Of a stretch of DNA of 64,000 bases, positions 24,466-41,645 are shown one piece after another. The translations under genes and the position numbers were made by a program. The notes under the pieces are model-generated. The model had not been told where the DNA came from. It saw only the letters and a program-made list of their open reading frames with translations, and did no database searches. The stretch is taken from NCBI RefSeq assembly GCF_023716925.1, contig NZ_JAMQQG010000045.1, forward strand, positions 1 through 64,000, in the 5' to 3' direction. Source of the stretch: Frankia sp. R82. Lineage in GTDB: Bacteria > Actinomycetota > Actinomycetes > Frankiales > Frankiaceae. Every line of letters begins with the position of its first letter. The first letter of the stretch is position 1.

Positions 24466-24568
24466 CCCCTCAGCCTACGGTCCTTGTGGAGCTGGTCCGC
24501 CAGGCACCGGCGACGGCGACGGCCGCTGAGATGCGAGGCCTGTCGGAGTGGCGTACTAACGTCGCACG

Positions 24569-25162
24569 ATGACCGACGGAGTGGATTCGTCCCCTACGCG
24601 CCTGGATGCGACAGTGAGCGTGCCGCAGTCGTCCGGGGACCTGATCGACGACCTTCGCGACGCTCACACACGCATCAAGATCGCGGTTCTCGGAGCCGCC
24701 GCCCGTGGACGAGTGTCCGACCCCGACGCCGTGCTCGCCGCGATCACACCTGAGTTGGCGGCCGTCAAGGCGCTGGCGGCGGAGGCCGCGCTGCGCGTCG
24801 TCGTGGAGACAGAACGGCGGGAGCGTACCGAGCGGGCCCGCGCGCGCATGGTCCGACTGGACGAGTCACGGGTACGTAACGCTGTCGCGAACCTGGTCGT
24901 CACCGAAGTGGACAAGGAATTCGACCCGCGCGGCTGCTTCGTCTACCTGCTGTGGGGAGCCGACCCCGACAGGCCGCTTTACGTGGGAAAGTCAACAAAA
25001 ATCCTGGCGAGGTTGGGGCAGCACATGGGCGACCGGCAAAAGCGACACCGTGTCCAGCGCGTCACGGTGATTCGGTGCCGGGATGGCCGCCAGATGAATC
25101 GCACGGAAGAAAAGCTGATCGCGGAGTACCAGCCGACGCTCAACATCCTGGGCATCGAATAG
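24569..25162 (+). CDS. GIY-YIG nuclease-superfamily protein
   Basis: 197 residues. Residues 1-118 are helical and charged. The C-terminal domain has the GIY-YIG layout: CFVYLLW at 123-129 (GIY strand), LYVGKSTKILARL at 137-149 (YIG strand, with Arg148), H151, Glu180/Glu181 on the RTEEKLIAEYQP helix and Asn192 in PTLN. These match the Tyr, Arg, Glu and Asn positions of GIY-YIG endonucleases such as homing enzymes and UvrC. A DNA-cleaving or nicking role on the element is plausible but the target is unknown. Confidence 0.82.
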   Translation: MTDGVDSSPTRLDATVSVPQSSGDLIDDLRDAHTRIKIAVLGAAARGRVSDPDAVLAAITPELAAVKALAAEAALRVVVETERRERTERARARMVRLDESRVRNAVANLVVTEVDKEFDPRGCFVYLLWGADPDRPLYVGKSTKILARLGQHMGDRQKRHRVQRVTVIRCRDGRQMNRTEEKLIAEYQPTLNILGIE

Positions 25163-25350
25163 CGACGTTTATTGCTCCGCCAGGAAATGCGATGGGGTCC
25201 CGATCCGGTCCGGCCGTGTGCGACCGTCGCTGGTCCGGACCCGGACCCCGGACCGGACCCGGACTCAGACCGGGCCAGGACCGGCCCCACGGCTCAGAAT
25301 CCGGATCTTGTCGGGGCGGACAGTGACGCTGGTTCGGCGCTCGCAGTGGG

Positions 25351-25866
25351 TTAGGGCAGGGCGGGCAGGTGCGAGGCGAGATCGGGGATGTTGGCGGTGA
25401 GCAGACGGTGCAGGGCGGCGCCGGGGGTGCGCTGGAGAGGCCGGATCGGGCTGGTGAAGTACTCGGGGTCGTCGAAGACCGGTTCGCCGCCTGGGCGGCG
25501 GGTGAACGGGACGCGGCCGTAGTCGATGCCGTCGGTGTCGTCGCAGCTCATCCAGGTGATCGCTTCCTGCTCGTCGGGTTGCACGGGTGCGGTGAACAGG
25601 GGCCGGGCCTGGATGATCTCGCCGTCGTCGTACCAGACCTGGGGGACGGCGAGGACCCAGCGGCGGGTGGCGTTGCTCTGGGCTTGCGCGGCGGCGCGGA
25701 TCTCGAACGCGAGCGCGGTCGCCCAGCTGATCAGATAGGGGGCGTCGGTGAGGATCAGGTTCCGGGTGCCGTGCAAGCCCAGGATCGCGGGGTGGTCGCC
25801 GGCGCGGACAGCGTGTTGCACACGGCTGGTGATGTCCTCGACCAGCGTCCAGGTGTCAGTGTTCAC
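25351..25866 (-). CDS. Hypothetical protein of the mobile element
   Basis: 171 residues from a GTG at 25866, 9 bp after GAGAGG; the longer ATG form adds a Pro-rich stretch that overlaps this ribosome-binding site. The protein is soluble, with Trp-rich stretches (RRWVLAVPQVWYDDGEII, AITWMSCDDTDGIDYGRVPF). The family was not recognised. It shares the strand with the replication-relaxation gene about 310 bp upstream, and the two may be co-transcribed. Confidence 0.65.
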   Translation of the reverse strand: MNTDTWTLVEDITSRVQHAVRAGDHPAILGLHGTRNLILTDAPYLISWATALAFEIRAAAQAQSNATRRWVLAVPQVWYDDGEIIQARPLFTAPVQPDEQEAITWMSCDDTDGIDYGRVPFTRRPGGEPVFDDPEYFTSPIRPLQRTPGAALHRLLTANIPDLASHLPALP

Positions 25867-26176
25867 AGTCCAGGTCCTCTCTTCCGTCGGATGGGGTGGG
25901 GCCTGTGTCGGCCTCACATGGGAAATACGGGCGGGGTGCGGCCCGACCGTCCGCGCGACGCGAACGCACCTACCGGCACCCGCCGCGGGCCGGCGACAGG
26001 TTGGTGGTAGGCCGGGTCCTTATCCCTCATACGGGGCGGGTGAGGCCCCGACCGTCCAAGACGCGGGCCGAGAAGCCGAGGCGCTGGCCATGTGACCCGA
26101 GCCCGGAAACGGCGACGGTCCCGCCGCGCGCCCGGGGAGGCGTGGGGCGGGACCGTCGTAGCAGCGGGTTGGGGGG

Positions 26177-27223
26177 TTAGGCGGCGGCTTGCTGCCCGTA
26201 CTGGCCGGTGGGGGGCATGGGTCGGGGTGGGTGTAGCCGTCCTGGCCGGGGCTGGACGGCTACGTCCTCGGCGTCCTTGGGCCTGGGGGTGGGGGTGGAG
26301 CGGTGGGGCCAGACCCGGTCGAGCTGGTGCAGGGCGAAGCGGCCGGGGCCGGCCGAGGTGGTAGGCAGGGGTAGCCAGCGCACGAGGGTGGGGTCAAGGT
26401 GGTCGTCCGGTGCGACGAGGTCGGCTGCGGTGGTCGCGACGGGCACCAGGGCGGGCTGGGCGGATTCGCGCAGGGCGCGGGTCAGGGCCAGGCGGGCGGC
26501 GGTCTCACGGCGGCTGGTGGGGAACCAGAACAGGACCGGGGTGGTGATCCTTGTGGCGGTGACGAGCTGCTGGTAGTCGGGGAGTTTCGCGGCGAGACGG
26601 CGCATCGGTTCGGTGCCGTAGTCGAGTTCGAGGAACCATTCGATCTCGGTGCCGTGGTGGGCCCAGCGGCCGTAGGCGTCGGGGCGGACGATGTCGCCGA
26701 AGTGGTCGGCGCAGCGTTCCTGCGACCACCAGGCGGTCAGAGTGCCGGTGGTGTCGGGCTGGCGGGCGTGGTGCACGAGGCTGGTGAACATGGCGTTGAC
26801 CGCGACCCGGTGGGCGAGGTGCAGGGAGTGGGCGATGCCTTTCGCCCGGTCGTGCTGGTAGCCGGTCTTCTTCGGGTCCACGCCGTCCTCGTGGGCGAGC
26901 ACGGCCGCACCGGCAACGTCCAACACGTAGTGCATGGGCGCCAGGCCGCTTGCGGCGAGTGGCTGGAAGCGGTCCAGGACCCGCCAGCGGTAGAGCTCCA
27001 GCAGGCGGATGTTCGCCGAGCGGCGTGACGTCCAGGCGAGCTGGGCGATCTGGTGGGTGGTCAGGACCCGATGCTCGTGGATCATCCGGGTGATCCAGCG
27101 GTCTCGGGGCGTGAGGTGGCGGGCCAGCCAGAGCAGATGGTCGTTTCCGGTGACGGTGCGGGCGGTCGGCCGGGCGTAGGTGCGGTGGCCAAGATGGCGC
27201 TGCTGCGGAGGATTCGTGATCAA
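26177..27223 (-). CDS. Replication-relaxation family protein
   Basis: 348 residues. The N-terminal winged-helix region (MIHEHRVLTTHQIAQLAW, SRRSANIRLLELYRWRVLDRF) and the following conserved blocks (VLDVAGAAVLAHEDG, HLAHRVAVNAMFTSLV, EIEWFLELDYGTEPMRRLAAKL) match the Replic_Relax family (PF13814). These proteins occur on actinobacterial plasmids and integrative elements and are linked to replication or transfer of the element. The C-terminus is Pro/Arg-rich. It is the only clear DNA-processing protein here besides the integrase and the GIY-YIG protein. Confidence 0.85.
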   Translation of the reverse strand: MITNPPQQRHLGHRTYARPTARTVTGNDHLLWLARHLTPRDRWITRMIHEHRVLTTHQIAQLAWTSRRSANIRLLELYRWRVLDRFQPLAASGLAPMHYVLDVAGAAVLAHEDGVDPKKTGYQHDRAKGIAHSLHLAHRVAVNAMFTSLVHHARQPDTTGTLTAWWSQERCADHFGDIVRPDAYGRWAHHGTEIEWFLELDYGTEPMRRLAAKLPDYQQLVTATRITTPVLFWFPTSRRETAARLALTRALRESAQPALVPVATTAADLVAPDDHLDPTLVRWLPLPTTSAGPGRFALHQLDRVWPHRSTPTPRPKDAEDVAVQPRPGRLHPPRPMPPTGQYGQQAAA

Positions 27224-28313
27224 ACGGGGCGTCTCCCAAGAACGGAACGGTCAGACAGACACGGCGAAGAACGTGACGGCGGCGTACACGGGGAACTAAG
27301 GGCCAAGCGGGTCCGAAAGCCGGCAGGAGGTGACCGCGCAAGCCCGTCCCCGGGAGACCAGAGAGCTCGACGGGTCGCCAGCGATATCCCTGCCGCGACC
27401 GGCGCGGCGGGTGCCAGCCTCCGTCGGCAAGCACGGTCCTGCCCGGTGGCTACGCCGGCCGAGACGTGAGGGCCGCGAGTGCCCCATGCAGGCCACCGGG
27501 CGAGGGATCGTGTGGCCGTCGTCGGAGCAGGTCGGCAGCCGCGCGGCCGACCGGGCACTGATCGCGACCGGCGTCCCGGTCGACCCGCGAGAAAAGAAGC
27601 GCCCGACTGGTCGGGTGGCCACCTACGGCGCCGGTGAGTCAGCGTCCGGTGAACGCTCCCCGGTAGGCGTGGCGGGCGCGGGACGGCACCGCGGAAAGGA
27701 CCGCACCAACAAGGTCTCATACCGACGGAAAGCGACACGATCCCAGAGGGCTACCCCGATCACGACCAAAGCCAAACCACCGACCGGCCGCGCTCCGCCG
27801 CCCTGCATCCAACAGTGGAAGAACCCCGCCCACGACACCAATCCAGAAACCTCGGGTGGGCGTCACAGGCGCACGACCTGCACCATGGCCCCATATTCGG
27901 GTCGCCCATCGGCCTTCCCCCTGGCGGGCGGGCGGGTGGTCCGATGGGCGGGCGAACCGCAAGCCGACATTTAAGGCATTAAAGACAAATAACCCGAGAA
28001 TTTGTGTTCGAGATCACACGGATTCATCAACGCAATCGTGGGTTGGCAGATGCCCATCACCGACCCAATAAGATCGTATGGCCATCGCCCCATGCTGGCG
28101 CGGACGGACGTCGTCGGAGCCCTGCCGTGTAAGTCGAGGTCGAGGCGGACCGCATGAGCGGAACCGTGCACGGCCGCGCATGGCAGCACCCAGCCGTACG
28201 CGTGACCGAATACCCGCGCGGGCCATACCGGGGCTCAAAGATCATTTGAGTGGAGGTCGGCGTCGGCATCCCTCGCACCGCTGACGGCTGTTCGCAGTGG
28301 GTCGCGTCGTCGC
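27224..28313. other. 1.1-kb gap between replication-relaxation gene and lanthipeptide operon
   Basis: No confident gene. A minus-strand ORF at 27623-27841 (72 codons) has one hydrophobic segment (GGLALVVIGVALW) but no ribosome-binding site; it may be a small membrane protein. An AT-richer patch at about 27970-28030 (TTAAGGCATTAAAGACAAAT) could hold a promoter. Confidence 0.4.
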
Positions 28314-29480
28314 TCAACCCGTGCTTGCAGCCTTCGCCGTTGTGGACGGACTGTGGCCGGCATGGCGACCCAGACACTCCCGTAGGTGATTTTCAGCGAT
28401 GGCAAAGGCATCGGTCAGGTCGTTGCGCAGCAGGTGCGGGAGGGCTCCCGCGTCGAGCCCAGAGGCCCGAGCAAGATCGGCCAGGGTTTCACGTTCCGTG
28501 GCCGACAGGGCTTCGGCCAGCAAGCGGTGGGCGAGTGCATCCCGGGCTGCGTAGGCATCGCCACATGCGCCGTTGATCAATGCTGTGCGTAGTGGGCTGA
28601 GGTGTGGGTGGTCGTGGCCGCCGGCGAGATCGAGCGCGACCATGCCAGTTCGGCCGCGAAAGACCGCGGCAGGCGGATCTGGCTGGCCCAGCATGGCGAG
28701 GACAGCAGCGAGCATCGGCGGAATCTGGGAGCGCACCTCAGCGCCGGCCGCGCGCATGCAGTAGACGCGTAGCAGGCTTTGAACGGCCGGTTCCCATGAT
28801 GATTCGGAGGCCGCACTCTGCTCGACCATGGTCGCGGCGCGCTCTGTCTGGCCGTCCTGCACGAGAGCCAGGATGGTGACCTGGCGGCCGTCGAGCAGCC
28901 GTACGCCGACTCCGCGGTGGGCCGCCGCGTGTTCGGCGGCCTCTCGCCAGCGTCCGGCTTGTGTGAGCGCGCGGGCGCCATCCGCCAGGAACGCGGCCCA
29001 GATCACGGCACATGCCACTCGGTGATCTTCATGGCCGCGGGTGATATCCCGAAGGTTCACCGATCGCTCGTCGATCACAGTGTCTATTCGGTTACGCGCG
29101 GCATGGTAGAGCGTTCGAAGCATTGCGTAGGCGCCGTCGCCGTCACCCTCGCGAATCAGCTGGCGCGGTAGGTTCAGGACCGGCTGGAGGGAAAGCTCGA
29201 TGACTGATGTCGGCAGCCGCGCCTGGTTGAATACCTCATGCTGCCGCCAGCACAGGTTGCGGGCGAGTTCCGACTCCCCGCAGTCGGAGGCGATCAACGC
29301 TGCTGCGTTGCAGACTTCAGCTGCCCGTATCCCTCGATCGTCGTGAGCTGCCTGTGTGGCCAGGTCCTGCAATTGTTTAACGCGAGTCGCCAGAGGAAGG
29401 CATGGAGGGCGGGGGCGCGGTACCAGTGGAAACCATGCGAGCGCGTTTCCAGTTATCGGAGGTACGCTGACCTTCGTCAT
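28314..29480 (-). CDS. Uncharacterised helical-repeat protein, last gene of the lanthipeptide operon
   Basis: 388 residues, almost entirely Ala/Leu/Arg-rich helices with a repeat-like spacing (AAEVCNAAALIASDCGE, QTERAATMVEQSAASESS, AYAARDALAHRLLAEALSA), suggesting a TPR-like scaffold. No signal peptide or catalytic motif is seen. It is separated from the SpaB_C-type gene by only 20 bp on the same strand, so it is probably translated from the same mRNA as the modification enzymes. A role in regulation or complex assembly is inference only. Confidence 0.7.
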   Translation of the reverse strand: MTKVSVPPITGNALAWFPLVPRPRPPCLPLATRVKQLQDLATQAAHDDRGIRAAEVCNAAALIASDCGESELARNLCWRQHEVFNQARLPTSVIELSLQPVLNLPRQLIREGDGDGAYAMLRTLYHAARNRIDTVIDERSVNLRDITRGHEDHRVACAVIWAAFLADGARALTQAGRWREAAEHAAAHRGVGVRLLDGRQVTILALVQDGQTERAATMVEQSAASESSWEPAVQSLLRVYCMRAAGAEVRSQIPPMLAAVLAMLGQPDPPAAVFRGRTGMVALDLAGGHDHPHLSPLRTALINGACGDAYAARDALAHRLLAEALSATERETLADLARASGLDAGALPHLLRNDLTDAFAIAENHLRECLGRHAGHSPSTTAKAASTG

Positions 29481-29500
29481 CGAAGTCCGTTTCTCGCGGC

Positions 29501-30316
29501 CTAGTCGGAGGTGTCGCCGAACACCACATTTCTGGCGGTGTTGGCTAAGGTGGCCTGAGTAGCATGGGGAAGTCCGTGCCGGTTCCAGGCGAAGATAACG
29601 TGATGAGCCAGAATGGCGCGTAGTCCGCGGTGTAGCCGCCCGTCGGCTGCCAGCGTAGCCAGTTCCGTGCCAGCAGCGGCAAAGGCGTCGGCCCAGCCTG
29701 CGGCAGGGGCTAGAGAGGTGCCCTCGCGGGTCAGACTTCCGGTGTCGACGCTCATCAGCCGTCGCAAGTTTTCTTGCAAGGCACGGCGTCGGTCGTCAGG
29801 AATCTGCGCTGGTCGTTCGCGGTGGGCGGCGACCCGTGACCACACGTCTCCTTCCTCGTACCAATCGAGTCCAGCCGCATGCAGGAGATGCGCGCACAGA
29901 AGGATTGACAACTCGCGACGGTGCCTCTTGGCTGGCAGATGGCAGGTATTGTCGAGATAGGCGAGCAGGTGCTTGCTGTCGAGATGAAAGAGCTGGTGGG
30001 AAATTTTCATGCCTTCATCACCGCCGAAGGCGTGAATTTCAGGTTCGTAGATCACGAAGGTTGCGCCTTGGATGTGGTGCGCGTCTTTAAGTTTATCGAG
30101 ATGACGTTGCATGTATTCCTGCGCCACTGCCGTACGGCGGAGGGACTGGTAGCGAACTCGCCAGTTAGGCGATTTGCGGACAAAAAACCAAGATGCGATG
30201 AGATCGTCGCTGCTGGCTTCGGCCAGCAGGGGGGCAAGGTGAGCCAGGGCAACGTTCTCGGCGCTCGCCCAGTCAAAAAACGTGATGTTCACCTGGTGCC
30301 AGTGGCTGGGGTCCAC
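29501..30316 (-). CDS. Stand-alone SpaB_C-type protein (thiopeptide-type bacteriocin biosynthesis)
   Basis: 271 residues. The opening (HWHQVNITFFDWASAENVALAHLAPLL), the central SWFFVRKSPNWRVRYQS and the later YEPEIHAFGGDEGMKISHQLFHLDS match the SpaB C-terminal-like domain (Lant_dehydr_C, PF14028). This domain performs glutamate elimination from glutamylated Ser/Thr in class I LanB enzymes. The neighbouring LanB already has such a domain, so this is a second, separate copy, as found in other FxLD gene clusters. It follows lanC by 15 bp. It may act as an extra elimination or partner subunit; that is inference. Confidence 0.85.
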   Translation of the reverse strand: MDPSHWHQVNITFFDWASAENVALAHLAPLLAEASSDDLIASWFFVRKSPNWRVRYQSLRRTAVAQEYMQRHLDKLKDAHHIQGATFVIYEPEIHAFGGDEGMKISHQLFHLDSKHLLAYLDNTCHLPAKRHRRELSILLCAHLLHAAGLDWYEEGDVWSRVAAHRERPAQIPDDRRRALQENLRRLMSVDTGSLTREGTSLAPAAGWADAFAAAGTELATLAADGRLHRGLRAILAHHVIFAWNRHGLPHATQATLANTARNVVFGDTSD

Positions 30317-30331
30317 GTGGTGAGCTCCTGA

Positions 30332-31567
30332 TCAGGACAGTAGTAGAAATGCGTCCCACTCCGATATCGGGGCGTTCCCGGTGCCGGCGGTGTGTAGGGC
30401 GAGTGCAGCCCCGGCCGCGCCGTCGAGAAGTTCGGGATTGAGTGAGGGTTGGCCCATCTGGGCTATCAGCCTGGCGGCCACGTTGGGTATCTCAGCGGCG
30501 ATCCGGGGGTTGCGGGAATCGGCAGCCATTCGCCATGTGGCTTGGAGAAGTCCGGCGGTTCCGTGACACAGCCCGATCTCTGCAAGCTGATCCAGCTGTG
30601 TCTGATCCCGCAGCGTTGCCAGCAGCGCGCTCTCCGCGATCTCCTGGCGTGCCGTGTCGCCGAGGGCGAGGCCGGCGAGTTGCTGGGCTCGGGCGGTACC
30701 GGCGATGCCGTAACACCAGGATGGCCGGGGCCGCAGTGCCTGGGCGATGCGGTGATCGCGATTCTGGTCGACGGTGATGAGCCCTGGCCACCATGGGCCG
30801 GCGTCGTGCTGGCACCACTGGTCGGTCCATGCGCAGATCCGTGCGACCGCTTCGTCGATGCCTGGGGTCGGCAGATCACGGAGCAGGGCCAGCGAGAGTA
30901 GGGCCATGACGGCGCCGATGCCGTGTGCGAGGCCGAAGTTCCCGTGGCCGTGCGGGTATTGCGGGTTCGGCTCGCCGTTGGGCGACACGTCGGTCCACCA
31001 CGGTGGGAGTTCGCCTCGCGCGGGCAACGGTTCAGTAAGACGTACCAGGTACGACAACAGCTCGTGGGTGATCGGGTGGTCTGGATGCCGCCGGAGATGG
31101 TAGACGCCCAGCCCTGTTAGGCCCCGGATCAGGTCGAACTCTTTCATCGTGGGCCGTTGTCCCTGCTCGATCCGTGTGTGCGCCGCGGCCAGACGGCTCC
31201 GTGTCATCGCGAGGACAGCTTGATCCAGATGGTCGATCGCGCGGTGGTATCTGTCTGTTGTTCCGGCGGCCAGATGGGTGACGAATGCCAGTGCTGGCGC
31301 CCCGAAGAACAAGCCTGCGTTGGACGCCGCGGTCAGTTCGTCCGAAGCGGCGGCGGACAGCCAGGCGTGGGCGGTCTGCCAGTCGCCACGTCCGGTGTAG
31401 GCGCGTTCAATATGCAGCAGGGCGATGCCCGCCGCGCCGCCGGCCAGCGACTGCGGCCATGCCCTTCCTTCCGATGGCGGCGCGGCGGCCCACGTTGTAC
31501 GCGGGTCGGCCAGCGCATCGGCGACGGAGTCCGCGATGGCCAGCGCGTCCGGTCCGGACCTAATCAT
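30332..31567 (-). CDS. lanC: Lanthionine synthetase, LanC-like cyclase
   Basis: 411 residues. LanC toroid motifs are present: LAGGAAGIALLHIE near the start, GNFGLAHGIGAV in the middle, then WCYGIAGTARA and LCHGTAGLLQA, which supply the two Cys and one His that bind zinc. The enzyme adds Cys thiols of the precursor onto dehydrated Ser/Thr to form lanthionine rings. Its ATG (31567) overlaps the LanB stop in ATGA and is 6 bp after GGAGGA, so the two are coupled. Length and motif spacing are normal for a class I LanC. Confidence 0.93.
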   Translation of the reverse strand: MIRSGPDALAIADSVADALADPRTTWAAAPPSEGRAWPQSLAGGAAGIALLHIERAYTGRGDWQTAHAWLSAAASDELTAASNAGLFFGAPALAFVTHLAAGTTDRYHRAIDHLDQAVLAMTRSRLAAAHTRIEQGQRPTMKEFDLIRGLTGLGVYHLRRHPDHPITHELLSYLVRLTEPLPARGELPPWWTDVSPNGEPNPQYPHGHGNFGLAHGIGAVMALLSLALLRDLPTPGIDEAVARICAWTDQWCQHDAGPWWPGLITVDQNRDHRIAQALRPRPSWCYGIAGTARAQQLAGLALGDTARQEIAESALLATLRDQTQLDQLAEIGLCHGTAGLLQATWRMAADSRNPRIAAEIPNVAARLIAQMGQPSLNPELLDGAAGAALALHTAGTGNAPISEWDAFLLLS

Positions 31568-34500
31568 GATGTCCTCCCTGCTCGCGCGGTCCAGCTCAGT
31601 GCGGCGGCGCGGGCGAGGTGCAGGCATGCACGCTCGCCGGTCAGGTCCGTTCCGACCATGCGGGCGTGGTGAAGATGCAACAGATCGGGCAGGAGGACGG
31701 CTGGGGATGCTGTGCCGGTCTCCCGAAGTACACGACGGTAGGTGGCAAGTGCTTCGCGTCGGCGTGTCCAGGAGGAGATGATCGACGTGCCGAAGGGCTG
31801 CGTGGCCAGGTCCCGCTGGTCTGTCGGATTCGCCAGTGCGATGGCCTGCCGGTAGAGAGCACGAGCCGGCGCGGATGGTTCCGTCCGGGTGTGCTCGATC
31901 AGCCAGGTCATGGCCTCGGCGGCATCGCTGATCAAACCGATCGTGATGTCGAGCATGCTTGCAGCGGTCAGGGCACGCACGTCGGGGCCGTCCTTTTCAC
32001 TGGAGGCCGCAAGCTGCGCGAGGGCTGCGGCGGAGTCGGCCGCGAAGTACGCCTCCGCGGCTTCCAGCGCGGCCGTGCCCCCGAAGCGAGCAGCCTCGGG
32101 AAAACAGGTGTCCCACTGGACGTGCGAGACCAGACCTGCTCGGCGAAGGCGCTGGGTCCAGGCGCCGATCCAGGCGGCAGTGGGCGCGGCCTCGTCGGCA
32201 GGGACAACCAGTCGCACGCGTAGATGCTCTTCGGGGTCGTGGTAGCGCAGGAACCACCATCGCAGCCCGGAGTTCACCTGCTTGTCCAACTCGGTCACCA
32301 GGTACGGCAGATGGCGGGTGAGGATGCTGCTCTGGCTGTCAGGTCTGGCGTAGAGCTTGACGAAGAACCGCCCATCGCAACCGGGAAGATATCCGTGGTC
32401 GCGACCGACCAGCCGGGCGGTCTTTCGCCATGGCGCTGTCGTCGTCGGAGGGCCGGCGGCGGCCAGAGGGATGACGATCTCGTGGGCATATCCTTCGATC
32501 CAACCCGCCCCCTCGGCGTCGGGGGCGGCGCGCAGGACGACGGTGCCGGCGCGGTCCAGCTGGGTGCGTAACAGCGCCCGGTGAGCCGGCTCCGACAGGT
32601 CCAGCATGATGCGCTGGTCTCCCTCACCGAGGTAGATCGCCCTTGGAAGCCTCACTCGCTCACGCCACGAAGCCAGGAGACGCTCCCATTCCTCCCAGCT
32701 GGCTGCTGGGGCGGGTAGGTCGGCGGCCACCAGCAGCCAGCGAGCCGGAGAGAGGATCGCGCGCCCGTGTCGCAGCGCCGGCAGGAAGGGGAGCCCGGCC
32801 GCAGCCCCCCAGTCGAAGGAAGTACAGGGGATGCTCATCGCGACCGTGGCCTCGGCGAGGAACCGCACCAGCGGATGCGCGTATCGACTGGGCTCCACCG
32901 CGTTGAGCACCACCGGTTCGACCATCTGGCGCCGGGAGATCGAGATCAGGTAGATCCGGTGGGCGTCCGCCGTCACCGCAATGTCGTCCAGCGCTATCTG
33001 CCCCCCGCCCTCGGCGCTGCCGCCCTCGTGGTACTCGCCAAGGGACAGGAGATGGGCCATCACGTGCGGGCTACGGGCTACGTTGTCGCTGGTCGTGTAC
33101 CGGGTGGGTGCCGAGATCTGCACTGTGAGCGCGCCATGGCTCACGGTCGCGAGGCTTGCATGCGGCGCGGACATCCGCGCATGGTCTTCGTCGTCGAACA
33201 GGTCCAGGAATCGTCCCGTCGTCGTGCCGGCCGAGCGCGACACTCCGACGATCGCGAGTGCGAACTCACCTTCGCTCACCGAGCGTCTGCTTGCGGCATG
33301 AATGCGTACGGTTAGTTCGGTGGTCGGCTGGATGGAGCCGGCAGCATCGACAACCGTAAGATCATTGATCATGGTCTCGTTGAGCAGAATCTCCGTCTCG
33401 CCCCCCAGCGCGGCTTTCTGCGCCAGCGTCAGCAGCTTCATGTCCCGCTCGGTGAGTGTGGTGCTCGCGATAGCAGGAGCCCCGAGGTAACCAGCCGGGT
33501 AGCCCAGCCCGATCCCGGCGTCGACGGCGTCGCGAACGGGGACCAGAGCATGCGGGCCGTACCGTTCCAAAAAGCGGCTGTGCCAGGCATCCCAGCCACG
33601 GCTGAGCGTCGGGCGTCGGGCCAGGCGCACCAGCACCGCCGCCGTCGCCGCTGCCTCGTCCGCTATCAGACGGGGGACGGCCAGATCCCAGTCCATGCGT
33701 AGATCGACCCCCAACGCCGGCTTCGCCGTGGGGCAGATGGCGGCCATCTCGTCGGCGAGACGTACACGATGTCGGCTCGCGATGTCCCAGTCGGCCGCGC
33801 CGTCGTGCGCCCGCAACCCGTCGGCGATCCCGCCCAGCTGAGCGGCGATCGTGGCCACCGCGGAGGATTGTCCGCCAGCGGAGATCGATTGGAGCACGCC
33901 CACCACATGGTCGAGAGGGCTGCTTGCCGTCGTCGCAGGCCGCAGGTTCGTAATCAGAAGGCGCTGTTCCACCAGGGCCGCCAGAAGCGTGTCGACAACG
34001 CTCAACGGGACAGGCGTGACCTTGGCTCGAAGCCTGACCGCGAGGTCTCCGATCAGAATGGGCCTGTCCGCCATGTCCATGGCGACGCGGATCGGCGTGG
34101 TCGCGCGTACCTGGACGTGTGTGGGTGCGCCGGCAGCCGCTGCGCTCGGGCGGTGTTCCAACACGAAGTAGCCGTCACGCTCGAACACGAGGTTGTTCGC
34201 CACGACCCGCAGGTGTGGCCGAAGCGTCGAGTCGGCTTCGAGTCGTTCGATCACGGCGGTGAGCCATCCACCGTCAACCCGCGCGACGGCACGGTGCGCT
34301 GCGCCGATCCGAGCAGAGGGGCGGTCGGCCAGGCGGGCAGATGCGACCCCCGCGAACAGGCCGAAGGGCGTTGCGCGTCCCGAGGCGCGCAACAGATAGC
34401 GCATCACTGACAGCACTGCCCGGCGCACCGCAGATTCGGAGACCTGCTGTCCATCGCAGATCTCGCGTACTCGGCGTGCCAGGACCGGGCTGGCCTGCTC

Positions 34501-34665
34501 CAGCGCAACCCAGAAGTCGGGATCTTGCATCACCCGACGCAGCCACCGGCGCCACGACTCCGGCGCAGCCGCCTGTCCCAGCAGGTCGGGCCACCGACCG
34601 TCTTCCGTAGTCGCAGGCCGGTTGACTGCCGCGCGCACCACCAGGGAGTCAAGATGCTGATACAT
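31564..34665 (-). CDS. lanB: Class I lantibiotic dehydratase, full-length LanB
   Basis: 1033 residues, typical for full LanB. The N-terminal glutamylation domain (roughly 1-700) has RYLLRASGRATPFGLFAGV near residue 90 and FLERYGPHALVPV near 370. The C-terminal elimination domain (roughly 770-1030) has FFVKLYARPDSQSSI, GLRWWFLRYHDPEEHLRVR and the later QPFGTSIISSW. With glutamyl-tRNA as donor it should dehydrate Ser/Thr in the precursor encoded just upstream. It overlaps lanC by 4 bp. A strong hairpin lies between the precursor gene and this gene. Confidence 0.95.
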   Translation of the reverse strand: MYQHLDSLVVRAAVNRPATTEDGRWPDLLGQAAAPESWRRWLRRVMQDPDFWVALEQASPVLARRVREICDGQQVSESAVRRAVLSVMRYLLRASGRATPFGLFAGVASARLADRPSARIGAAHRAVARVDGGWLTAVIERLEADSTLRPHLRVVANNLVFERDGYFVLEHRPSAAAAGAPTHVQVRATTPIRVAMDMADRPILIGDLAVRLRAKVTPVPLSVVDTLLAALVEQRLLITNLRPATTASSPLDHVVGVLQSISAGGQSSAVATIAAQLGGIADGLRAHDGAADWDIASRHRVRLADEMAAICPTAKPALGVDLRMDWDLAVPRLIADEAAATAAVLVRLARRPTLSRGWDAWHSRFLERYGPHALVPVRDAVDAGIGLGYPAGYLGAPAIASTTLTERDMKLLTLAQKAALGGETEILLNETMINDLTVVDAAGSIQPTTELTVRIHAASRRSVSEGEFALAIVGVSRSAGTTTGRFLDLFDDEDHARMSAPHASLATVSHGALTVQISAPTRYTTSDNVARSPHVMAHLLSLGEYHEGGSAEGGGQIALDDIAVTADAHRIYLISISRRQMVEPVVLNAVEPSRYAHPLVRFLAEATVAMSIPCTSFDWGAAAGLPFLPALRHGRAILSPARWLLVAADLPAPAASWEEWERLLASWRERVRLPRAIYLGEGDQRIMLDLSEPAHRALLRTQLDRAGTVVLRAAPDAEGAGWIEGYAHEIVIPLAAAGPPTTTAPWRKTARLVGRDHGYLPGCDGRFFVKLYARPDSQSSILTRHLPYLVTELDKQVNSGLRWWFLRYHDPEEHLRVRLVVPADEAAPTAAWIGAWTQRLRRAGLVSHVQWDTCFPEAARFGGTAALEAAEAYFAADSAAALAQLAASSEKDGPDVRALTAASMLDITIGLISDAAEAMTWLIEHTRTEPSAPARALYRQAIALANPTDQRDLATQPFGTSIISSWTRRREALATYRRVLRETGTASPAVLLPDLLHLHHARMVGTDLTGERACLHLARAAALSWTARAGRTS

Positions 34666-34683
34666 CCGCCGCTCCGCAGTTGA

Positions 34684-34730
34684 GGCGGCGTCCGTCCAGG
34701 CGAGAGAAGCCGCCCAGGCGGACGCCGCGG
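34684..34730 (-). terminator. Hairpin between precursor and lanB, probable attenuator
   Basis: In the 96-bp gap, GGCGGCGTCCG and CGGACGCCGC arms enclose a second pairing region. There is no T-run. In lanthipeptide operons such a stem after the precursor commonly lets through part of transcription and stabilises the upstream mRNA, giving more precursor than enzyme. Confidence 0.55.
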
Positions 34731-34761
34731 ACTCAGGTCATCGAGGCGCTGAGGGCGCCGC

Positions 34762-34953
34762 CTACGGACAGGTGGTCGAGCAGGCCGACTGGCACGTCTG
34801 GCCGCAGCCGTCGTCGGTCATCCGGATGAGCCGGTCTGCGGCCGGCCCCGACTCGACGATCGAGATGTCCAGGTCCCAGCTGGCGAGGTCCTCCTGATCC
34901 TGCGCCAACTTCGGAACGACAGCCAATGCAGGCTCGTCGAAATGGATGGTCAT
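34762..34953 (-). CDS. lanA: FxLD-family lanthipeptide precursor
   Basis: 63 residues. The leader has the motif SWDLDISIVESG (residues 25-36), an FxLD variant with Trp for Phe. The C-terminus TDDGCGQTCQSACSTTCP is the likely core. It has four Cys exactly four residues apart (50, 54, 58, 62) and Thr/Ser at 46, 53, 56, 59, 60 and 61 available for dehydration. Asp48-Gly49 is a classic succinimide-forming pair and a likely target of the adjacent LanS-type methyltransferase. AAGGGAG precedes the ATG by 6 bp. The leader cleavage point is not evident. Confidence 0.93.
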   Translation of the reverse strand: MTIHFDEPALAVVPKLAQDQEDLASWDLDISIVESGPAADRLIRMTDDGCGQTCQSACSTTCP

Positions 34954-35025
34954 ACAGATCTCCCTTCGAGGCGATGGCGGTGGGGTTCCGGTGCCCCTCG
35001 ACGTTCGGCCGGGGAGCCCGGAATT

Positions 35026-36261
35026 CTAGGACCAGGAGATCGCGACAGCGCCATGCCGTTTCGGCACGATCCCCGTGGATGGCAGAGGCGTTCCAGCAGC
35101 CTTGGGTATGTACCGAATGCGAGCCGCGCCGGTACGCCGATGATCCCTCTCCCATCGGCGAAGCAGATCAACGTACTCATTGGCGACGCGCTCGGCATCG
35201 GGACCGTGAGCGAAGACGCCACTCTCGAATCCGCCAATCTCGCCATTCGGACGCTTTGTCCGGTAGGCGAAACTGGCACCGCTGATCAGGATGGGAACAC
35301 CTCTGCCGGCGGATGGGGCGAATTGGCCGTCCGCGATGAGATTTTCATTCACGTGCAGCAACGCGACCCGGCGCATATTGGTGACGAGAAAGAGTTCGAG
35401 CTCGTCAGGGAGATCGAATGCTGCGCCAGACCAGCGCTCCAGCCGCGGGGAGTTCAGCGACTCCCGCAGTCCCTCGATATCGTAATCCGGCGGCGGCCCG
35501 TCGAGACGGAGCCCGACCTCTTCGGTCAGCTTGACGATCGACTCGCGAGATGAACCGATTCCCTGCATGGGAACGAAACCACACAGACGGTAGCTGCGGC
35601 TCGTCAGACTCACCTTGCCGTCCGCATCGACCCGGTCGAACGCGACGGAGCGGGTCAGTCCTCTCATCCGCAGCGGCACAACGATCCTGCCCCGGTCCGA
35701 TAGCTGCTCCAGCCAAGCCGGCGGAATGTCCCAGGCCCCAGCGGTAACGACGATCCGGTCATAAGGGGCTTTTTCGGGCACACCTGCCTCGGCGTCGGCC
35801 ACCACCACGTCCACGCGGTCATAGCCGGCCGCATTCAGACAGGCACGGGCCCGCACCACAATCTCTTGATCGATATCGACCGATGTGACCGCCCCGCCGT
35901 CGCCGACGAGCTCCTGCATCAGCGCGGCATTATAACCACCCGAGCCGATCTCAAGAACTCGCATGCCAGGTTCGAGCTCGGCCTGTTCCAGCATGACCGC
36001 CTGAATGTGCGTAGCAGAAAGGGAACTGATCGCTACGCCATCTCGGTCGCGCTTGACTACCACCGCATCGTTCGCGGCGTACGCCGCCTCCAGTGACTCC
36101 TCCGGAGCGAACAGGTGTCGGGGTACTCTCAAAATTGCCTTTGCAACAGCCCCCGTTATGATCGCGTCACCCGTTGCGCGAAGCTCATCCACCATACGAG
36201 CCCGCAGCAGGGCCGCGGCATCCTGGGTTCCTGAATCTCGAACTGGAATCATGCTGGACAC
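35026..36261 (-). CDS. FxLD-system O-methyltransferase (PCMT-like, LanS type)
   Basis: 411 residues. The first 230 residues resemble protein-L-isoaspartate O-methyltransferase: SATHIQAVMLEQ, the SAM motif VLEIGSGGYNAAL, VTSVDIDQEIVVRA and the YDRIVVTAGAWDIPPAWLEQL loop. The remaining 180 residues are the extension typical of the methyltransferase, FxLD system family. Related enzymes of class I clusters methylate a core Asp, which goes through a succinimide to isoaspartate. The gene heads the operon, 72 bp upstream of the precursor. Confidence 0.92.
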   Translation of the reverse strand: MSSMIPVRDSGTQDAAALLRARMVDELRATGDAIITGAVAKAILRVPRHLFAPEESLEAAYAANDAVVVKRDRDGVAISSLSATHIQAVMLEQAELEPGMRVLEIGSGGYNAALMQELVGDGGAVTSVDIDQEIVVRARACLNAAGYDRVDVVVADAEAGVPEKAPYDRIVVTAGAWDIPPAWLEQLSDRGRIVVPLRMRGLTRSVAFDRVDADGKVSLTSRSYRLCGFVPMQGIGSSRESIVKLTEEVGLRLDGPPPDYDIEGLRESLNSPRLERWSGAAFDLPDELELFLVTNMRRVALLHVNENLIADGQFAPSAGRGVPILISGASFAYRTKRPNGEIGGFESGVFAHGPDAERVANEYVDLLRRWERDHRRTGAARIRYIPKAAGTPLPSTGIVPKRHGAVAISWS

Positions 36262-36488
36262 CTTAGCGAGTCGATGGAGAGGGTGGAGGTAGTGCCTTCC
36301 GTTCTACCGGCAGCTACGGATCATAGAGAGACGCCATCAGAACTTCCTCTTTCCTTCCTCTGGCTCAATCCAAAGGATTTCGGTGACGGATACGTAGTCA
36401 CAGCCCAGATCGTTCACCAGTCGCTTCACATGGGCCATTTTCCCGGTCGCCGCTAGTCCCACGAAGGTGATCTTCTCCGACCCGCCCG

Positions 36489-36836
36489 CTACCCCGACCC
36501 CGTCTCGCCATGTGCATGCCCGGTCGCGATGAGTAGCGTTCCGCCCAGCAGTTGGATTTCCATCTCAATCGCTTTCCTGATCGCCGCCCACGTCGAAAGA
36601 TGGTCGGAGGTAGGTACGATGACGCAACAACCCTCGCGGGCGCGAAGGCAATCAAGAAGTACGGACAATCCCGGCCGGATGAGCCTGCCCGGCGGCATAT
36701 TGCGGTCAACATACACCTCGGCCAACGTATAGCTCTCGGCGTCAGCGAACACAGTGACCTGGCGATGCAGCTTTGAGATCTCCTGTTTGTCGTCGCCGGT
36801 CAGACTGAGATATCCATAGGCCCAGGTCCGCCCCAT
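36489..36836 (-). CDS. Resolvase-domain-like protein lacking the catalytic serine
   Basis: 115 residues resembling only the catalytic domain of serine recombinases: AYGYLSLTGDDKQEI at the N-terminus aligns with the Y-x-R-x-S active-site strand, and RPGLSVLLDCLRAREGCCVIVPTSDHLS aligns with the helix and strand that end in DRLSR. The Arg and nucleophilic Ser positions read Ser and Thr, so recombinase chemistry is unlikely. A DNA- or protein-binding regulatory role is possible. GGAGG precedes the ATG by a few bases, and the start overlaps the end of the upstream XRE gene by 37 bp. Confidence 0.65.
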   Translation of the reverse strand: MGRTWAYGYLSLTGDDKQEISKLHRQVTVFADAESYTLAEVYVDRNMPPGRLIRPGLSVLLDCLRAREGCCVIVPTSDHLSTWAAIRKAIEMEIQLLGGTLLIATGHAHGETGSG

Positions 36837-37558
36837 CGGCCCTCCAGAGATTTACCACAGAGGTGACTGAAACCGCGACAGTTCGGCAAAGATTCGCGAG
36901 TTGGAGTCGGCTGTTCCGAAGTGTTCTCGGCACCAGCAGCAGCGCTGCCTACAGGTCGTGGACTTTGACGGCAGCAGGCGGTCGGGCCGCGGTGCAGATG
37001 GAGAAGCACGCTCGTCACACGGGCTTTGGAAAGCTCCTCGACCAACAGGACAAGGTTCTTCTCCGGCGGCGGCAAAACCGATCGCATGTGGGGATGCGGA
37101 ACGGCCGGCGTGCTGCCGGAATCTGCTTCCTCGCCCGTAGGTGGTCTGGCGACGGCTCTCATGCTGTCGATCAGCAGCAGGTCCAGTGGACGAATGTGTT
37201 CCCGGTCTTCTATGTCCAGGAGGCTATGGATGCCGGTTCCGTAAATCGCCGCCAGAATCGCGAGTCTCTGTGGCGTGGGGCGACCGCGGTTGGGGGATGG
37301 CCAATGCTCCATGTCGCAAAGACGCGGCGCACTCATAGGAGCTTTCCCGTGGGGATCGATATCGAGGTCCGCAGCAAGGGAATTCAGGCGATCAGCGGTC
37401 TGGTCCAGCGTCCAGCCGCGAGCCAGACGAAAGGCGGCGCGGGGTCGGTACCGATAGCGCCGGGCGAACTCGCCGGCAATTTCTGCGTGGGTCATCCCAG
37501 CGGCGTGCATGCGGTCGCGAAGGTCATCCTGCTCGGCTCGGAGGCTGCGCTTCCGCAT
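36800..37558 (-). CDS. XRE-type helix-turn-helix regulator, C-terminus shortened
   Basis: 252 residues. The N-terminal 130 residues match a common actinomycete regulator type: LRDRMHAAGMTHAEIAGEFARRYRYRPR, ARGWTLDQTADRLN (helix-turn-helix) and HWPSPNRGRPTPQRLAILAAIYG. Relatives usually continue into a long helical domain to about 400 residues. Here, after about residue 185, the sequence turns into an Arg/Ser/Pro-rich tail without domain character and overlaps the next gene, so a frameshift or truncation is likely. It lies upstream of the lanthipeptide operon on the same strand and may regulate it. Confidence 0.7.
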   Translation of the reverse strand: MRKRSLRAEQDDLRDRMHAAGMTHAEIAGEFARRYRYRPRAAFRLARGWTLDQTADRLNSLAADLDIDPHGKAPMSAPRLCDMEHWPSPNRGRPTPQRLAILAAIYGTGIHSLLDIEDREHIRPLDLLLIDSMRAVARPPTGEEADSGSTPAVPHPHMRSVLPPPEKNLVLLVEELSKARVTSVLLHLHRGPTACCRQSPRPVGSAAAGAENTSEQPTPTRESLPNCRGFSHLCGKSLEGRWGGPGPMDISV

Positions 37559-37784
37559 GATGACGTCCTCGCCCTCTCCCGCTTCAGTGAATGGTCGGCC
37601 GATTGGATCTGCCCGGCCAAGTCCACTAAAACGCAGTCACCGTCGCTCTCGACAGGTCCGGGAGCCGGGATGTCAAGGGGATGATTGGTGGGATTGATCA
37701 TTTACGGGCCGTAGGGGACCACTCACGGCGAGGTCAAGATCCATGCCATGATGGGCCGCTGACACGCCCCGGAGGAACGTGAAC

Positions 37785-39098
37785 ATGCCCGAACCGAACC
37801 ACCTGTTCCGGGCGGCCCGCCTGCGCGCGGAGTCGCCTGAAGCGCCAGGCGAGCCGCTGGCTCGCCGAGAGCTGGCCGAGCTGGTCAATGTCTGGATCTA
37901 CGACGCCACGGGCCGGGAGACGGCGATCGACGCGAACTACGTCGGTAAGCTTGAGCGTGGCCTCATCCGCTGGCCGGATGCCCTCTACCGGCAGGCGTTC
38001 CATGCCACCCTCGCAACCAAGCATGATCGAGAACTTGGCTTCCGCCGGCCGCGTCGCACGGAGCGGAACAGTGAAGACGTGAACCGAAACGAGTTTCTAC
38101 TCGCCATGGCCGGCGTGGGTGCTGTCGTCGCGACCGGCTCGTTCGCAGACCTGGCGATGGCCCGGGAGACAGAGTCCCCATCCGTCGTCGGACATTCCGA
38201 AATCGAAAAGCTGCGGATGGCTGCCACGCTCTTCGGCAACGTCGATCACACGTACGGTGGCGGATTCGTACGTGAGGCGGTCGCCGGTCAGCTCCGCTAT
38301 GCCGTGAACCTGCTGAACGCGCGATGCCCGGAGCACCTTCGCAACGAGTTGTTCGTCGCGGTGGGATTTCTCGGCCATACGGCCGGATTTATGGCATTCG
38401 ACGCCTACGTGCATGAGGACGCACGGCGAATGTTCTCGCTCGCTCTCGCATGTGCGGAGGAGGCGGGCGACTGGCATCTTCGAGCGAAAGCTCTGTCATC
38501 GATGGCACGGCAGGCTATCTGGCGGGGCGATTCCGACATGGGCCTGACATTGATCGACGTCGCGTTCATCCGTGGAGAGCGTCTGACGTCGACCGAACGC
38601 GCGATGCTCCTCGCAGCGAGGGCACGCGCACTGGCGAAGCTCGGCCGAGAGCAGGAGACGCTTCGAGCTGTAGGCCACGCCGATGAAGAGTTCGGACGTT
38701 CCGAGCCCGCGAACGATCCCGTGTGGATGGCCTACTACGACCTAGCGCAACACGCCGGAGATACCGGCCATTCAATATTCGATCTAGCTATTCGGAATGA
38801 CAAGCACGCCCCCGAGGCGGCGCGGCGGCTTGAGAGTGCCGTGGCCGGGCACAGCGCCACGTTTGCCCGGTCCAGGGCAATCAGCCAGACGAAGCTCGCA
38901 TCGCTTCTGATGAGCACCGGTGACCCCAGCGAGGCGGCGGCTGTGGGTGCTGCGGCGCTTGCAGCCGCCGGAACAATAAATTCTCGCCGTGCAGCAGATG
39001 ATATACGCGAGCTAGGGGTTTTTGCTGAGCATCATGACATGGTCGACGAGGTGGCCGAACTACGACGCAAGATCGAGATGGCGGTCGGTGTGACATGA
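37785..39098 (+). CDS. XRE/TPR-type transcriptional regulator
   Basis: 437 residues from ATG 37785, 8 bp after GGAGGA. The N-terminal DNA-binding part (LARRELAELVNVWIYDATGRETAIDANYVGKLERGLIRWP) is the form found in many actinomycete regulators. A hydrophobic stretch (FLLAMAGVGAVVATGSFA) and a long region of TPR-like helices (EEAGDWHLRAKALSSMARQAIWRGD) follow. It is divergent from the shortened XRE gene, with 226 bp between them that hold both promoters. Its last codons overlap the kinase-like gene downstream (ATGA), so the two are one operon. Confidence 0.85.
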   Translation: MPEPNHLFRAARLRAESPEAPGEPLARRELAELVNVWIYDATGRETAIDANYVGKLERGLIRWPDALYRQAFHATLATKHDRELGFRRPRRTERNSEDVNRNEFLLAMAGVGAVVATGSFADLAMARETESPSVVGHSEIEKLRMAATLFGNVDHTYGGGFVREAVAGQLRYAVNLLNARCPEHLRNELFVAVGFLGHTAGFMAFDAYVHEDARRMFSLALACAEEAGDWHLRAKALSSMARQAIWRGDSDMGLTLIDVAFIRGERLTSTERAMLLAARARALAKLGREQETLRAVGHADEEFGRSEPANDPVWMAYYDLAQHAGDTGHSIFDLAIRNDKHAPEAARRLESAVAGHSATFARSRAISQTKLASLLMSTGDPSEAAAVGAAALAAAGTINSRRAADDIRELGVFAEHHDMVDEVAELRRKIEMAVGVT

Positions 39099-40006
39099 AT
39101 GCTCAGTCGCGTCCGCGCACGTCGGACTCGGGTATCCGTATCCTGTTGCAGGAAGCCTGCAAAGAAGTAGGTATTCCCGTGGTCGATGCCGAACTTCTAC
39201 GGGAAGGTGAGAACACCATCTTCCGTTTACCGGGCCGGGTCGTGGTGCGGATCAGTCGGCGTGGCCAGGAAGCCGTAGCAAGGAAGGAGATCGCTGTCTC
39301 CCGGTGGCTTGAAGCGAACAACCTCTCTGCCGTTCGCGTGTTGCCCGAGGTCGGACGGCAACCGGTCATCGTGGAAGGGCGAGCCGTGACCTTCTGGCAA
39401 GAGCTTCCCGGTCACCGGCACGGGACGCCGGGCGAAGTGGCCAAAGCCTTGCATGCCTTGCACGCGCTCCCACCACCGAGACATTTTGAGCTGGGCCCCC
39501 TGTCTCCGATGGCACGTTTACGGGAGCGAATAGAGGCGGCAACAACACTCGACGCTTCTGATCGACAATGGCTGCGCAGCCAGGTGGATGCTCTGTCCGT
39601 TCGATACGACGGCCTAGCCGAGAATCTTTCCACCACTGTTGTGCACGGAGACGCATGGGGTGGAAACGTCGTTGTCACCGAGGACGGGGAGACTGTTCTC
39701 ATTGACCTGGAGCGGTGCTCCGTTGGACCCCGCGAATGGGATCTCGTCTCGACGGCGATCAAATACAGCTCGTTCGACTGGATTACAAGATCGGATTATG
39801 TCGAGTTTGTCGACGTCTATGGATACGATGTTGCGGCCTGGTCCGGTTTCGAGGTTCTTCGAGACATTCGGGAGCTGCGGATGGCCTGTTATGTGGCGCA
39901 ACAGGCCGCCAGTCAGAACAAGTGGGCCGACGAAGCGAGGACACGGGTGCAATGTCTACGCGGCCTCTATGGGCCACGGCCGTGGCTCTGGAGACCTGCG
40001 CTCTAA
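39095..40006 (+). CDS. APH-family phosphotransferase coupled to the XRE/TPR regulator
   Basis: 303 residues. The APH fold is visible: GENTIFRLPGRVVVRISR in the N-lobe, the catalytic loop VVHGDAWGGNVV (H-x-D-x4-N) near residue 185 and the metal-binding LIDLERCSVGPREWDLV near 207. It starts within the stop of the regulator gene. Many such pairs occur in actinomycetes, and the kinase may modify a signal molecule, an antibiotic or a sugar. The substrate is unknown. Confidence 0.85.
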   Translation: MNAQSRPRTSDSGIRILLQEACKEVGIPVVDAELLREGENTIFRLPGRVVVRISRRGQEAVARKEIAVSRWLEANNLSAVRVLPEVGRQPVIVEGRAVTFWQELPGHRHGTPGEVAKALHALHALPPPRHFELGPLSPMARLRERIEAATTLDASDRQWLRSQVDALSVRYDGLAENLSTTVVHGDAWGGNVVVTEDGETVLIDLERCSVGPREWDLVSTAIKYSSFDWITRSDYVEFVDVYGYDVAAWSGFEVLRDIRELRMACYVAQQAASQNKWADEARTRVQCLRGLYGPRPWLWRPAL

Positions 40007-41525: not shown

Positions 41526-41645
41526 GGCCTCTGTTCCCTTCTGGTTGCCCACGGGAGGCCTCTCGCCGTGCCACCCGTCCCGCGCGGCGCCTCCGGTCAC
41601 GGTCAGCTGCGCGGTACTGGCAGGATGCGCCTGCTGATGTGGCAT

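What the first reader, a model, noticed from the sequence alone, without database searches (positions are those of the whole stretch)
28314..36261. FxLD class I lanthipeptide operon as cargo of the mobile element
Six genes run on one strand: LanS-type methyltransferase, precursor, LanB, LanC, stand-alone SpaB_C protein, helical protein. The precursor has four Cys at exact 4-residue spacing and an Asp-Gly in the core that suits methylation and isoaspartate formation. The FxLD motif is a W-D-L-D variant. The operon lies wholly inside the integrated element, so the pathway is mobile.
Basis: partly seen in the sequence, partly recalled or inferred. Interest (0 to 1): 0.72.

Follow-up and report, generated by a model that had tools for sequence, protein, structure and literature searches.

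The report
Transferable coi-type lanthipeptide operon in Frankia
A root-nodule-type soil bacterium (Frankia) carries, inside a DNA element that inserted itself into one of its genes, a complete six-gene factory for a known but little-studied kind of ring-bearing modified peptide; it is a good example of a known kind, and its least understood parts are one uncharacterised helper protein and how the cluster spreads.

Summary
Six genes on the minus strand (36.26-28.31 kb) encode a PIMT-like methyltransferase (LanSA), a 63-aa precursor, LanB, LanC, a stand-alone SpaB_C protein and a helical protein. NCBI's own models name the system: precursor TIGR04363 (FxLD family lanthipeptide, 61 bits, cut-off 30), methyltransferase TIGR04364 (532 bits, cut-off 320). 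It is the known coi/olv ("lanthimiditide") kind. The WDLD motif and the C-x3-C-x3-C-x3-C core are common (19 of 63 relatives each). The cargo claim holds: a Methyltransf_19 gene is split at 19,257/51,956 with a serine integrase just inside; the same junction recurs in four other Frankiaceae genomes; a sibling genome lacks 39.7 kb here; a related element in another Frankia lacks the operon, whose phylogeny is discordant. Chemistry, bioactivity and present-day mobility are inferred, not shown.

The parts
35026..36261 (-). LanSA: PIMT-family O-methyltransferase, FxLD system (likely start ATG 36252)
   Evidence: TIGR04364 532 bits (cut-off 320), PF01135 144 bits; 74-75% aa identity in two homologous operons
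34762..34953 (-). LanA precursor, 63 aa: MTIHFDEPALAVVPKLAQDQEDLASWDLDISIVESGPAADRLIRMTDDGCGQTCQSACSTTCP
   Evidence: TIGR04363 61 bits, cut-off 30; TxDGC motif; RBS aagggagat
31564..34665 (-). LanB: full-length dehydratase (glutamyl transferase + anti-type glutamyl lyase)
   Evidence: PF04738 664 bits, PF14028 143 bits; aligns over whole length to MibB 5ehk; Tyr and Arg at the anti-lyase positions
30332..31567 (-). LanC cyclase (ATGA overlap with LanB)
   Evidence: PF05147 136 bits; GLAHG, WCYG and CHG motifs align with the NisC catalytic His and Zn ligands
29501..30316 (-). Stand-alone syn-type glutamyl lyase (SpaB_C / PF14028)
   Evidence: PF14028/TIGR03891; Lys48, Arg53, Arg55, Glu93, Ala96 in the alignment with LanB C-terminal domains
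28314..29480 (-). Helical protein 'H' (probable CoiH family), TPR-like solenoid, function unknown
   Evidence: homologues in 38 of 80 related loci; AlphaFold2 mean pLDDT 92.7, pTM 0.88; best matches TPR superhelices
37779..39098 (+). NsdA-family TPR-like regulator, divergent from the operon; candidate pathway regulator
   Evidence: NF053720 293 bits, cut-off 75; homologue within 9 kb in 16 of 80 relatives' loci
39095..40006 (+). APH-family kinase-like protein coupled to the NsdA-family gene; candidate accessory gene
   Evidence: PF01636 75 bits; homologue in 12 of 80 loci
18808..19257 (+). N-terminal half of the split Methyltransf_19 host gene (attL side; the ORF runs on to 19323)
19258..51956 (.). 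Inferred integrated element, 32.7 kb; junction placed in the shared CCG (19255-19257 / 51954-51956)
   Evidence: split gene halves complement each other (residues 7-108 and 106-264); junction conserved in other Frankiaceae
19874..21409 (+). Large serine recombinase (integrase) at the left end (ORF 19805-21409)
   Evidence: PF00239 + PF07508; 92% identical copy beside a truncated Methyltransf_19 gene in G010
26177..27223 (-). Replication-relaxation (PF13814) protein of the element backbone
   Evidence: 84% identical in the G010 element
51954..52430 (+). C-terminal half of the split Methyltransf_19 host gene (attR side)
   Evidence: same arrangement at the right end of a second element in G010

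Best explanation
A complete coi-type class I lanthipeptide ('lanthimiditide') operon carried by a serine-integrase element in a Frankia genome. Inferred pathway: LanB binds the WDLD leader motif and glutamylates core Ser/Thr with Glu-tRNA; its own C-terminal domain eliminates glutamate in the anti sense ((Z)-Dhb/Dha), while the stand-alone lyase eliminates in the syn sense at one or more Thr ((E)-Dhb); LanC closes (methyl)lanthionine rings, including Thr46-Cys50 and at least one D-allo-L-MeLan (Thr60 most likely, by its position); LanSA then methylates Asp48 inside the Thr46-Cys50 ring, giving aspartimide and mainly isoaspartate. Protein H, a TPR-like solenoid, probably acts as a docking or chaperone partner of the peptide or of the enzymes. 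Shown here: gene identity, active-site residues, conservation, purifying selection, element boundaries, horizontal transfer. Inferred: all chemistry, ring pattern, role of H, export route and biological activity.
For: Curated models for precursor and methyltransferase over cut-off. Same six-gene order in most of the 38 nearest loci with H, from Parafrankia, Microbispora, Streptomyces, Actinomadura, Micromonospora and others. Lys/Ala/no-His pattern of the lyase against Tyr/Arg/His in LanB (Lys in 63 and Ala in 62 of 72 lyases), the signature tied by mutagenesis and NMR to syn-elimination and D-allo-L-MeLan (PMC9011353, PMC9486935, PMC9890492). TxDGC is the core motif of LanSA substrates; Thr46/53/60 keep the 7-residue spacing of CoiA1 Thr43/50/57. 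LanC ligands conserved. dN/dS 0.18-0.32. Element. Transfer: operon 91% identical between Frankia G010 and Parafrankia G041 (rpoB 91%, gyrA 86%) but only 73% between G010 and this congeneric genome (rpoB 94%, gyrA 90%).
Against: No product of this operon is known, and none of a stand-alone-lyase operon was met in the papers read. No leader protease, exporter or immunity gene lies in the operon, and none emerged as a shared neighbour (a rough scan). The fold of H is a common helical-repeat arrangement; Foldseek E-values are all above 0.001. CoiH itself could not be fetched, so H = CoiH rests on position and family.
Confidence: 0.85

Rival explanations
1. The stand-alone SpaB_C protein is not a syn-glutamyl lyase but does another reaction, such as a thiopeptide-type [4+2] cycloaddition, as Walker et al. 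suggested was possible for such proteins.
For: PF14028 includes thiopeptide enzymes; the family model is named 'thiopeptide-type bacteriocin biosynthesis protein'; possibility raised in PMC7268733.
Against: Lys48 with RxR and Glu93 as in CoiSA(ED) and SptBb; no other thiopeptide gene; the group with an extra stand-alone lyase beside full-length LanB is classed as syn-lyase in PMC9486935.
Confidence: 0.1
2. The operon is present but silent or decayed, with no active product.
For: No protease, exporter or immunity gene in the operon; the genome holds at least three other LanB loci that could make it redundant.
Against: All reading frames intact, catalytic residues present, purifying selection on all genes since divergence from two other operons.
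Confidence: 0.12
3. The operon did not travel with this integrase; it entered a resident element or island by another route (recombination between elements or insertion by another system), so it is cargo by location only.
For: Homology to the G010 element backbone stops at 28017, just beyond the operon; in G010 and G041 the operon lies elsewhere without this integrase within the stretches fetched; G010-G041 homology is confined to one 9-kb block.
Against: In this genome the operon lies wholly between the two junctions, so any excision would carry it. This rival concerns the history of acquisition and is compatible with the best explanation of the pathway.
Confidence: 0.5
4. Protein H is a regulator (for example a peptide-sensing TPR protein like Rap/NprR) rather than a biosynthetic accessory.
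For: TPR-like superhelix with NprR and Rap among the top structural matches (Z 12-13).
Against: Equally good matches to unrelated eukaryotic TPR scaffolds (LGN, CNOT10); no DNA-binding domain found; co-directional last gene of the operon, directly after the lyase; a separate NsdA-family regulator is nearby; no profile similarity between H and that regulator.
Confidence: 0.3

Closest known systems
coi BGC of Streptomyces coelicolor (CoiA1/B/C/SA/H; D-allo-L-MeLan product)
   Same: Class I LanB and LanC, PIMT-type methyltransferase, additional syn-glutamyl lyase, additional protein of unknown function; precursor with modified Thr at 7-residue spacing
   Different: Here the lyase is a separate gene instead of being fused to the methyltransferase; one precursor instead of several; identity of H with CoiH not tested directly
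olv BGC of Streptomyces olivaceus (OlvA/B/C/SA; isoaspartate-containing lanthipeptide)
   Same: LanB, LanC, LanSA and conserved core Asp in a MeLan ring
   Different: olv has no extra glutamyl lyase and no H gene
Operons in Parafrankia sp. EUN1f (L009/L149) and in G010 (L146; a Frankia genome of 5,433,628 bp)
   Same: Same six genes in the same order, core TDDGCGTTCETACSTTCP, 73% DNA identity over 8 kb
   Different: Located outside the split-gene serine-integrase element in the stretches fetched
SapT (spt) pathway
   Same: syn-glutamyl lyase of the SptBb type
   Different: Split LanB, no LanSA, morphogenetic peptide

Membership tests
FxLD family lanthipeptide (TIGR04363/TIGR04364 system) | Precursor over the TIGR04363 cut-off | tested here: met
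   61.3 bits against 30
FxLD family lanthipeptide (TIGR04363/TIGR04364 system) | Methyltransferase over the TIGR04364 cut-off | tested here: met
   532.5 bits against 320
Class I lanthipeptide biosynthesis | LanB with glutamylation and elimination domains, and a LanC with Zn ligands and catalytic His | tested here: met
   PF04738 + PF14028 full length, RxTPFGLFAG motif against MibB; His/Cys/Cys-His motifs against NisC
Class I lanthipeptide biosynthesis | Lanthionine or methyllanthionine in the product | not testable with these tools
   needs expression and mass spectrometry
Lanthimiditide (LanSA-modified lanthipeptide) | TxDGC core motif and LanSA gene | tested here: met
   Thr46-Asp47-Asp48-Gly49-Cys50
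Lanthimiditide (LanSA-modified lanthipeptide) | Aspartimide or isoaspartate in the product | not testable with these tools
   needs mass spectrometry or NMR
syn-glutamyl lyase (SptBb/CoiSA(ED) type) | Lys in place of the anti-lyase Tyr, non-Arg residue in place of NisB Arg826, RxR and Glu kept, no catalytic His | tested here: met
   Lys48, Ala96, Arg53/Arg55, Glu93; LanB of the same operon has Tyr and Arg
CoiH family (unknown function) | Homology to CoiH of S. coelicolor | tested here: inconclusive
   H homologues lie directly beside fused lyase-methyltransferase genes of coi type, but the CoiH sequence was not at hand
TPR-fold proteins | TPR-like superhelical fold | tested here: inconclusive
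   Z 13.2, rmsd 6.0 over 260 residues (4wnd), but no Foldseek match under E 0.001; such Z is common for helical repeats
Site-specific serine-integrase element | Integrase gene next to one junction, host gene interrupted, same site used in other genomes | tested here: met
Actinomycete integrative conjugative element (AICE) | FtsK/TraB-type DNA translocase and replication gene beside the integrase | tested here: inconclusive
   Replic_Relax protein present; no translocase among the element ORFs scanned, but not every ORF was scanned

The most novel reading that the evidence does not exclude
Protein H defines a new class of lanthipeptide accessory factor: a TPR-like solenoid partner that goes with the syn-glutamyl lyase and decides which Thr is eliminated in the syn sense (so which ring becomes D-allo-L-MeLan), and the whole six-gene module is spread between actinobacterial genera as a unit, here by a serine-integrase element family that prefers Methyltransf_19 genes.
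Probability: 0.2. Interest if true: 0.6.

Novelty: new member of a known kind. Interest (0 to 1): 0.38.

Why it matters
These are the most abundant class I lanthipeptide families in Actinobacteria, and the mature form, function and export of their products are still unknown (PMC7268733, PMC13001092). This operon has the lyase as its own gene, which makes it a cleaner test system than the fused CoiSA for asking what the syn-lyase and the unknown H protein each do. The incongruent phylogeny and the element boundaries show that the pathway moves as a unit, which suggests a selectable function.

Tried and rejected
Solved-structure relatives of H by sequence: none. H against the nearby NsdA-family regulator by profile: no similarity. 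Attenuator hairpin between lanA and lanB: a GC-rich stem is there, but shuffles fold almost as well (z -1.3), so not claimed. Promoters and terminators in the operon region: no more than in shuffles. A search for direct repeats between the two ends gave no long repeat, as expected for serine integrases with a very short core. The dyad of the reconstructed attP (ATGGTACCG/CGGTCCCAT, read by eye) was not tested statistically; the pattern is not found in the window, as expected once it is split. One integrase relative (L151) sits beside a sequence that is not Methyltransf_19, so the target preference is strong, not absolute.
Full report
1. What is there. LanC most likely starts at 31567 (ATGA overlap with the LanB stop) rather than 31627, and the methyltransferase at 36252. 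The precursor is MTIHFDEPALAVVPKLAQDQEDLASWDLDISIVESGPAADRLIRMTDDGCGQTCQSACSTTCP; Asp47/Asp48, the four Cys at 4-residue spacing and W26-D-L-D29 are as described.

2. Identity of the family. NCBIfam names both ends of the system: precursor TIGR04363 'FxLD family lanthipeptide' at 61.3 bits (cut-off 30) and methyltransferase TIGR04364 'methyltransferase, FxLD system' at 532.5 bits (cut-off 320). LanB has both Pfam domains over its full length and aligns end to end with MibB. LanC has the NisC catalytic His and all three Zn ligands (residue roles from general knowledge of NisC). This is the olv/coi kind, recently called lanthimiditides: 1305 such clusters have been counted, with a TxDGC core motif; OlvSA methylates the core Asp after cyclisation, an aspartimide forms, and it opens mainly to isoaspartate (PMC13001092, PMC10787088). 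The finding is therefore a member of a known kind.

3. How special is it? A protein scan with the methyltransferase returned 80 loci in named actinobacterial genomes. 63 precursor candidates were recovered from these loci and the window: the aromatic position of the motif is F in 41, W in 19 and Y in 2; 19 have the 4-4-4 Cys spacing; all have a Thr-x-Asp at the start of the core (the Asp was part of the search pattern). W-D-L-D is thus a clade-typical variant.

4. The stand-alone SpaB_C protein. In an alignment with other such proteins and with LanB C-terminal domains, it has Lys48 where LanB has Tyr, keeps Arg53/Arg55 and Glu93, has Ala96 where LanB has Arg (NisB Arg826), and lacks the LanB His near the C terminus. 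Across the loci, a simple motif count finds Lys in 63 and Ala in 62 of 72 stand-alone or fused lyases. This is the published signature of syn-glutamyl lyases: Lys46 of CoiSA(ED) is needed for elimination, SptBb makes (E)-Dhb, and the products carry D-allo-L-MeLan (PMC9011353, PMC9486935, PMC9890492). A stand-alone extra syn-lyase beside full-length LanB is one of the three arrangements listed in PMC9486935. Thr46, Thr53 and Thr60 keep the 7-residue spacing of CoiA1 Thr43/50/57, of which Thr57 gives the D-allo-L-MeLan. I therefore predict D-allo-L-MeLan at Thr60; the Cys partners of Thr53 and Thr60 are left open. This is inference.

5. The helical protein. It has no Pfam or NCBIfam match but homologues stand at the 3' end of the operon, next to the lyase, in 38 of the 80 loci. 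In this genome and others, homologues also stand directly beside fused lyase-methyltransferase genes of coi type; [quoted passage not shown] Some lyase-bearing clusters lack it. Alignment A1 (36 sequences) has 20 invariant columns, among them Arg33, Asn58, Asp66, Asn103, Arg106, Arg110, Gln200 and Asp308. AlphaFold2 gives a confident, almost all-helical model (mean pLDDT 92.7, pTM 0.88). A structural second look ranks TPR superhelices first (LGN, NprR, Rap; Z up to 13.2), but Foldseek has no match below E 0.001 and such Z values are common for helical repeats. A peptide- or protein-binding solenoid is the most likely reading; its role is open.

6. Is the operon cargo of an element? A Methyltransf_19 gene is split: residues 7-108 at 18958-19263 and residues 106-264 at 51954-52424. 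Joining the halves at the CCG shared by both junctions (19255-19257 and 51954-51956) gives an in-frame DNDPIVLAHARA, close to DNDPLVLVHARA of the intact paralogue at 45817-46617. A large serine recombinase lies 0.6 kb inside the left junction. Relatives of it sit at a similar distance from a Methyltransf_19 gene cut at the same place in G010, G019 and G049, and the same junction sequence is seen in G045; a second G010 element shows the right junction with the C-terminal half. One further relative (L151) lies beside another sequence. In the sibling genome G006, the counterparts of window positions 12836 and 52538 are 388 bp apart, so the element together with a neighbouring CRISPR/guanidine region is absent there. 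The G010 element is 82% identical to the left backbone up to window 28017 and then diverges; its operon lies elsewhere, and homology between the two operons covers 28301-36273, the six genes alone. The operon is thus an exchangeable module in the element.

7. Transfer. The operons of G010 (Frankia) and G041 (Parafrankia EUN1f) are 91.3% identical over 8986 bp with abrupt ends, as high as rpoB (90.6%) and above gyrA (86.3%) for this pair; between G010 and the window's genome, congeners with rpoB at 93.8% and gyrA at 90.5%, the operon is only 73% identical. The operon does not follow the species tree. Purifying selection (dN/dS 0.18-0.32 for the five large genes) argues for function. Present-day excision or transfer was not tested, and no DNA translocase was seen among the ORFs scanned. 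The genus name Frankia for the window's genome is inferred: G010, a member of its genus, has the size I remember for F. casuarinae CcI3, and contig C348 of G041 (its family, another genus) matches the length of the named Parafrankia EUN1f contig.

8. An NsdA-family TPR-like regulator (37779-39098, 293 bits) and an overlapping APH-family gene (39095-40006) are divergent from the operon; homologues lie near the cluster in 16 and 12 of the 80 loci. No comparison with random loci was made, so the link is suggestive only. No protease, exporter or immunity gene was found.

9. Verdict. Observation confirmed; interpretation supported with the refinements above. New member of a known kind; the open points of interest are the H protein, the separately encoded syn-lyase and the mobility of the module.

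Noticed in passing
12954-15106: CRISPR array of about 33 repeats of 30 bp (Rfam RF01325, CRISPR-DR12), just left of the element; related arrays in two congeners. No cas gene was looked for.
   Followed up: partly
15360-18604: Guanidine-I riboswitch (18444-18602, minus strand, 64 bits, gathering 63) at the 5' end of an amino-acid permease gene followed by an arginase-family gene: a likely guanidine import and hydrolysis operon.
   Followed up: no
45817-46617: A complete second Methyltransf_19 gene lies inside the element whose insertion site is a Methyltransf_19 gene; the family is highly multicopy in Frankiaceae, which offers many insertion sites.
   Followed up: partly
L001, L003, L004, L006-L008 (G000 contigs C315, C350, C222): The same genome has at least three further LanB-type loci, one with a fused lyase-methyltransferase and two with an H homologue.
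   Followed up: partly
36800-37558: HTH-like gene beside the operon whose relatives occur next to the operon in L146 and L149 and also in two G010 elements of this family: possibly a trace of shared mobility.
   Followed up: no
L151 (G049:C187): Relative of the integrase with a left junction that is not in a Methyltransf_19 gene: alternative insertion site or rearrangement.
   Followed up: no
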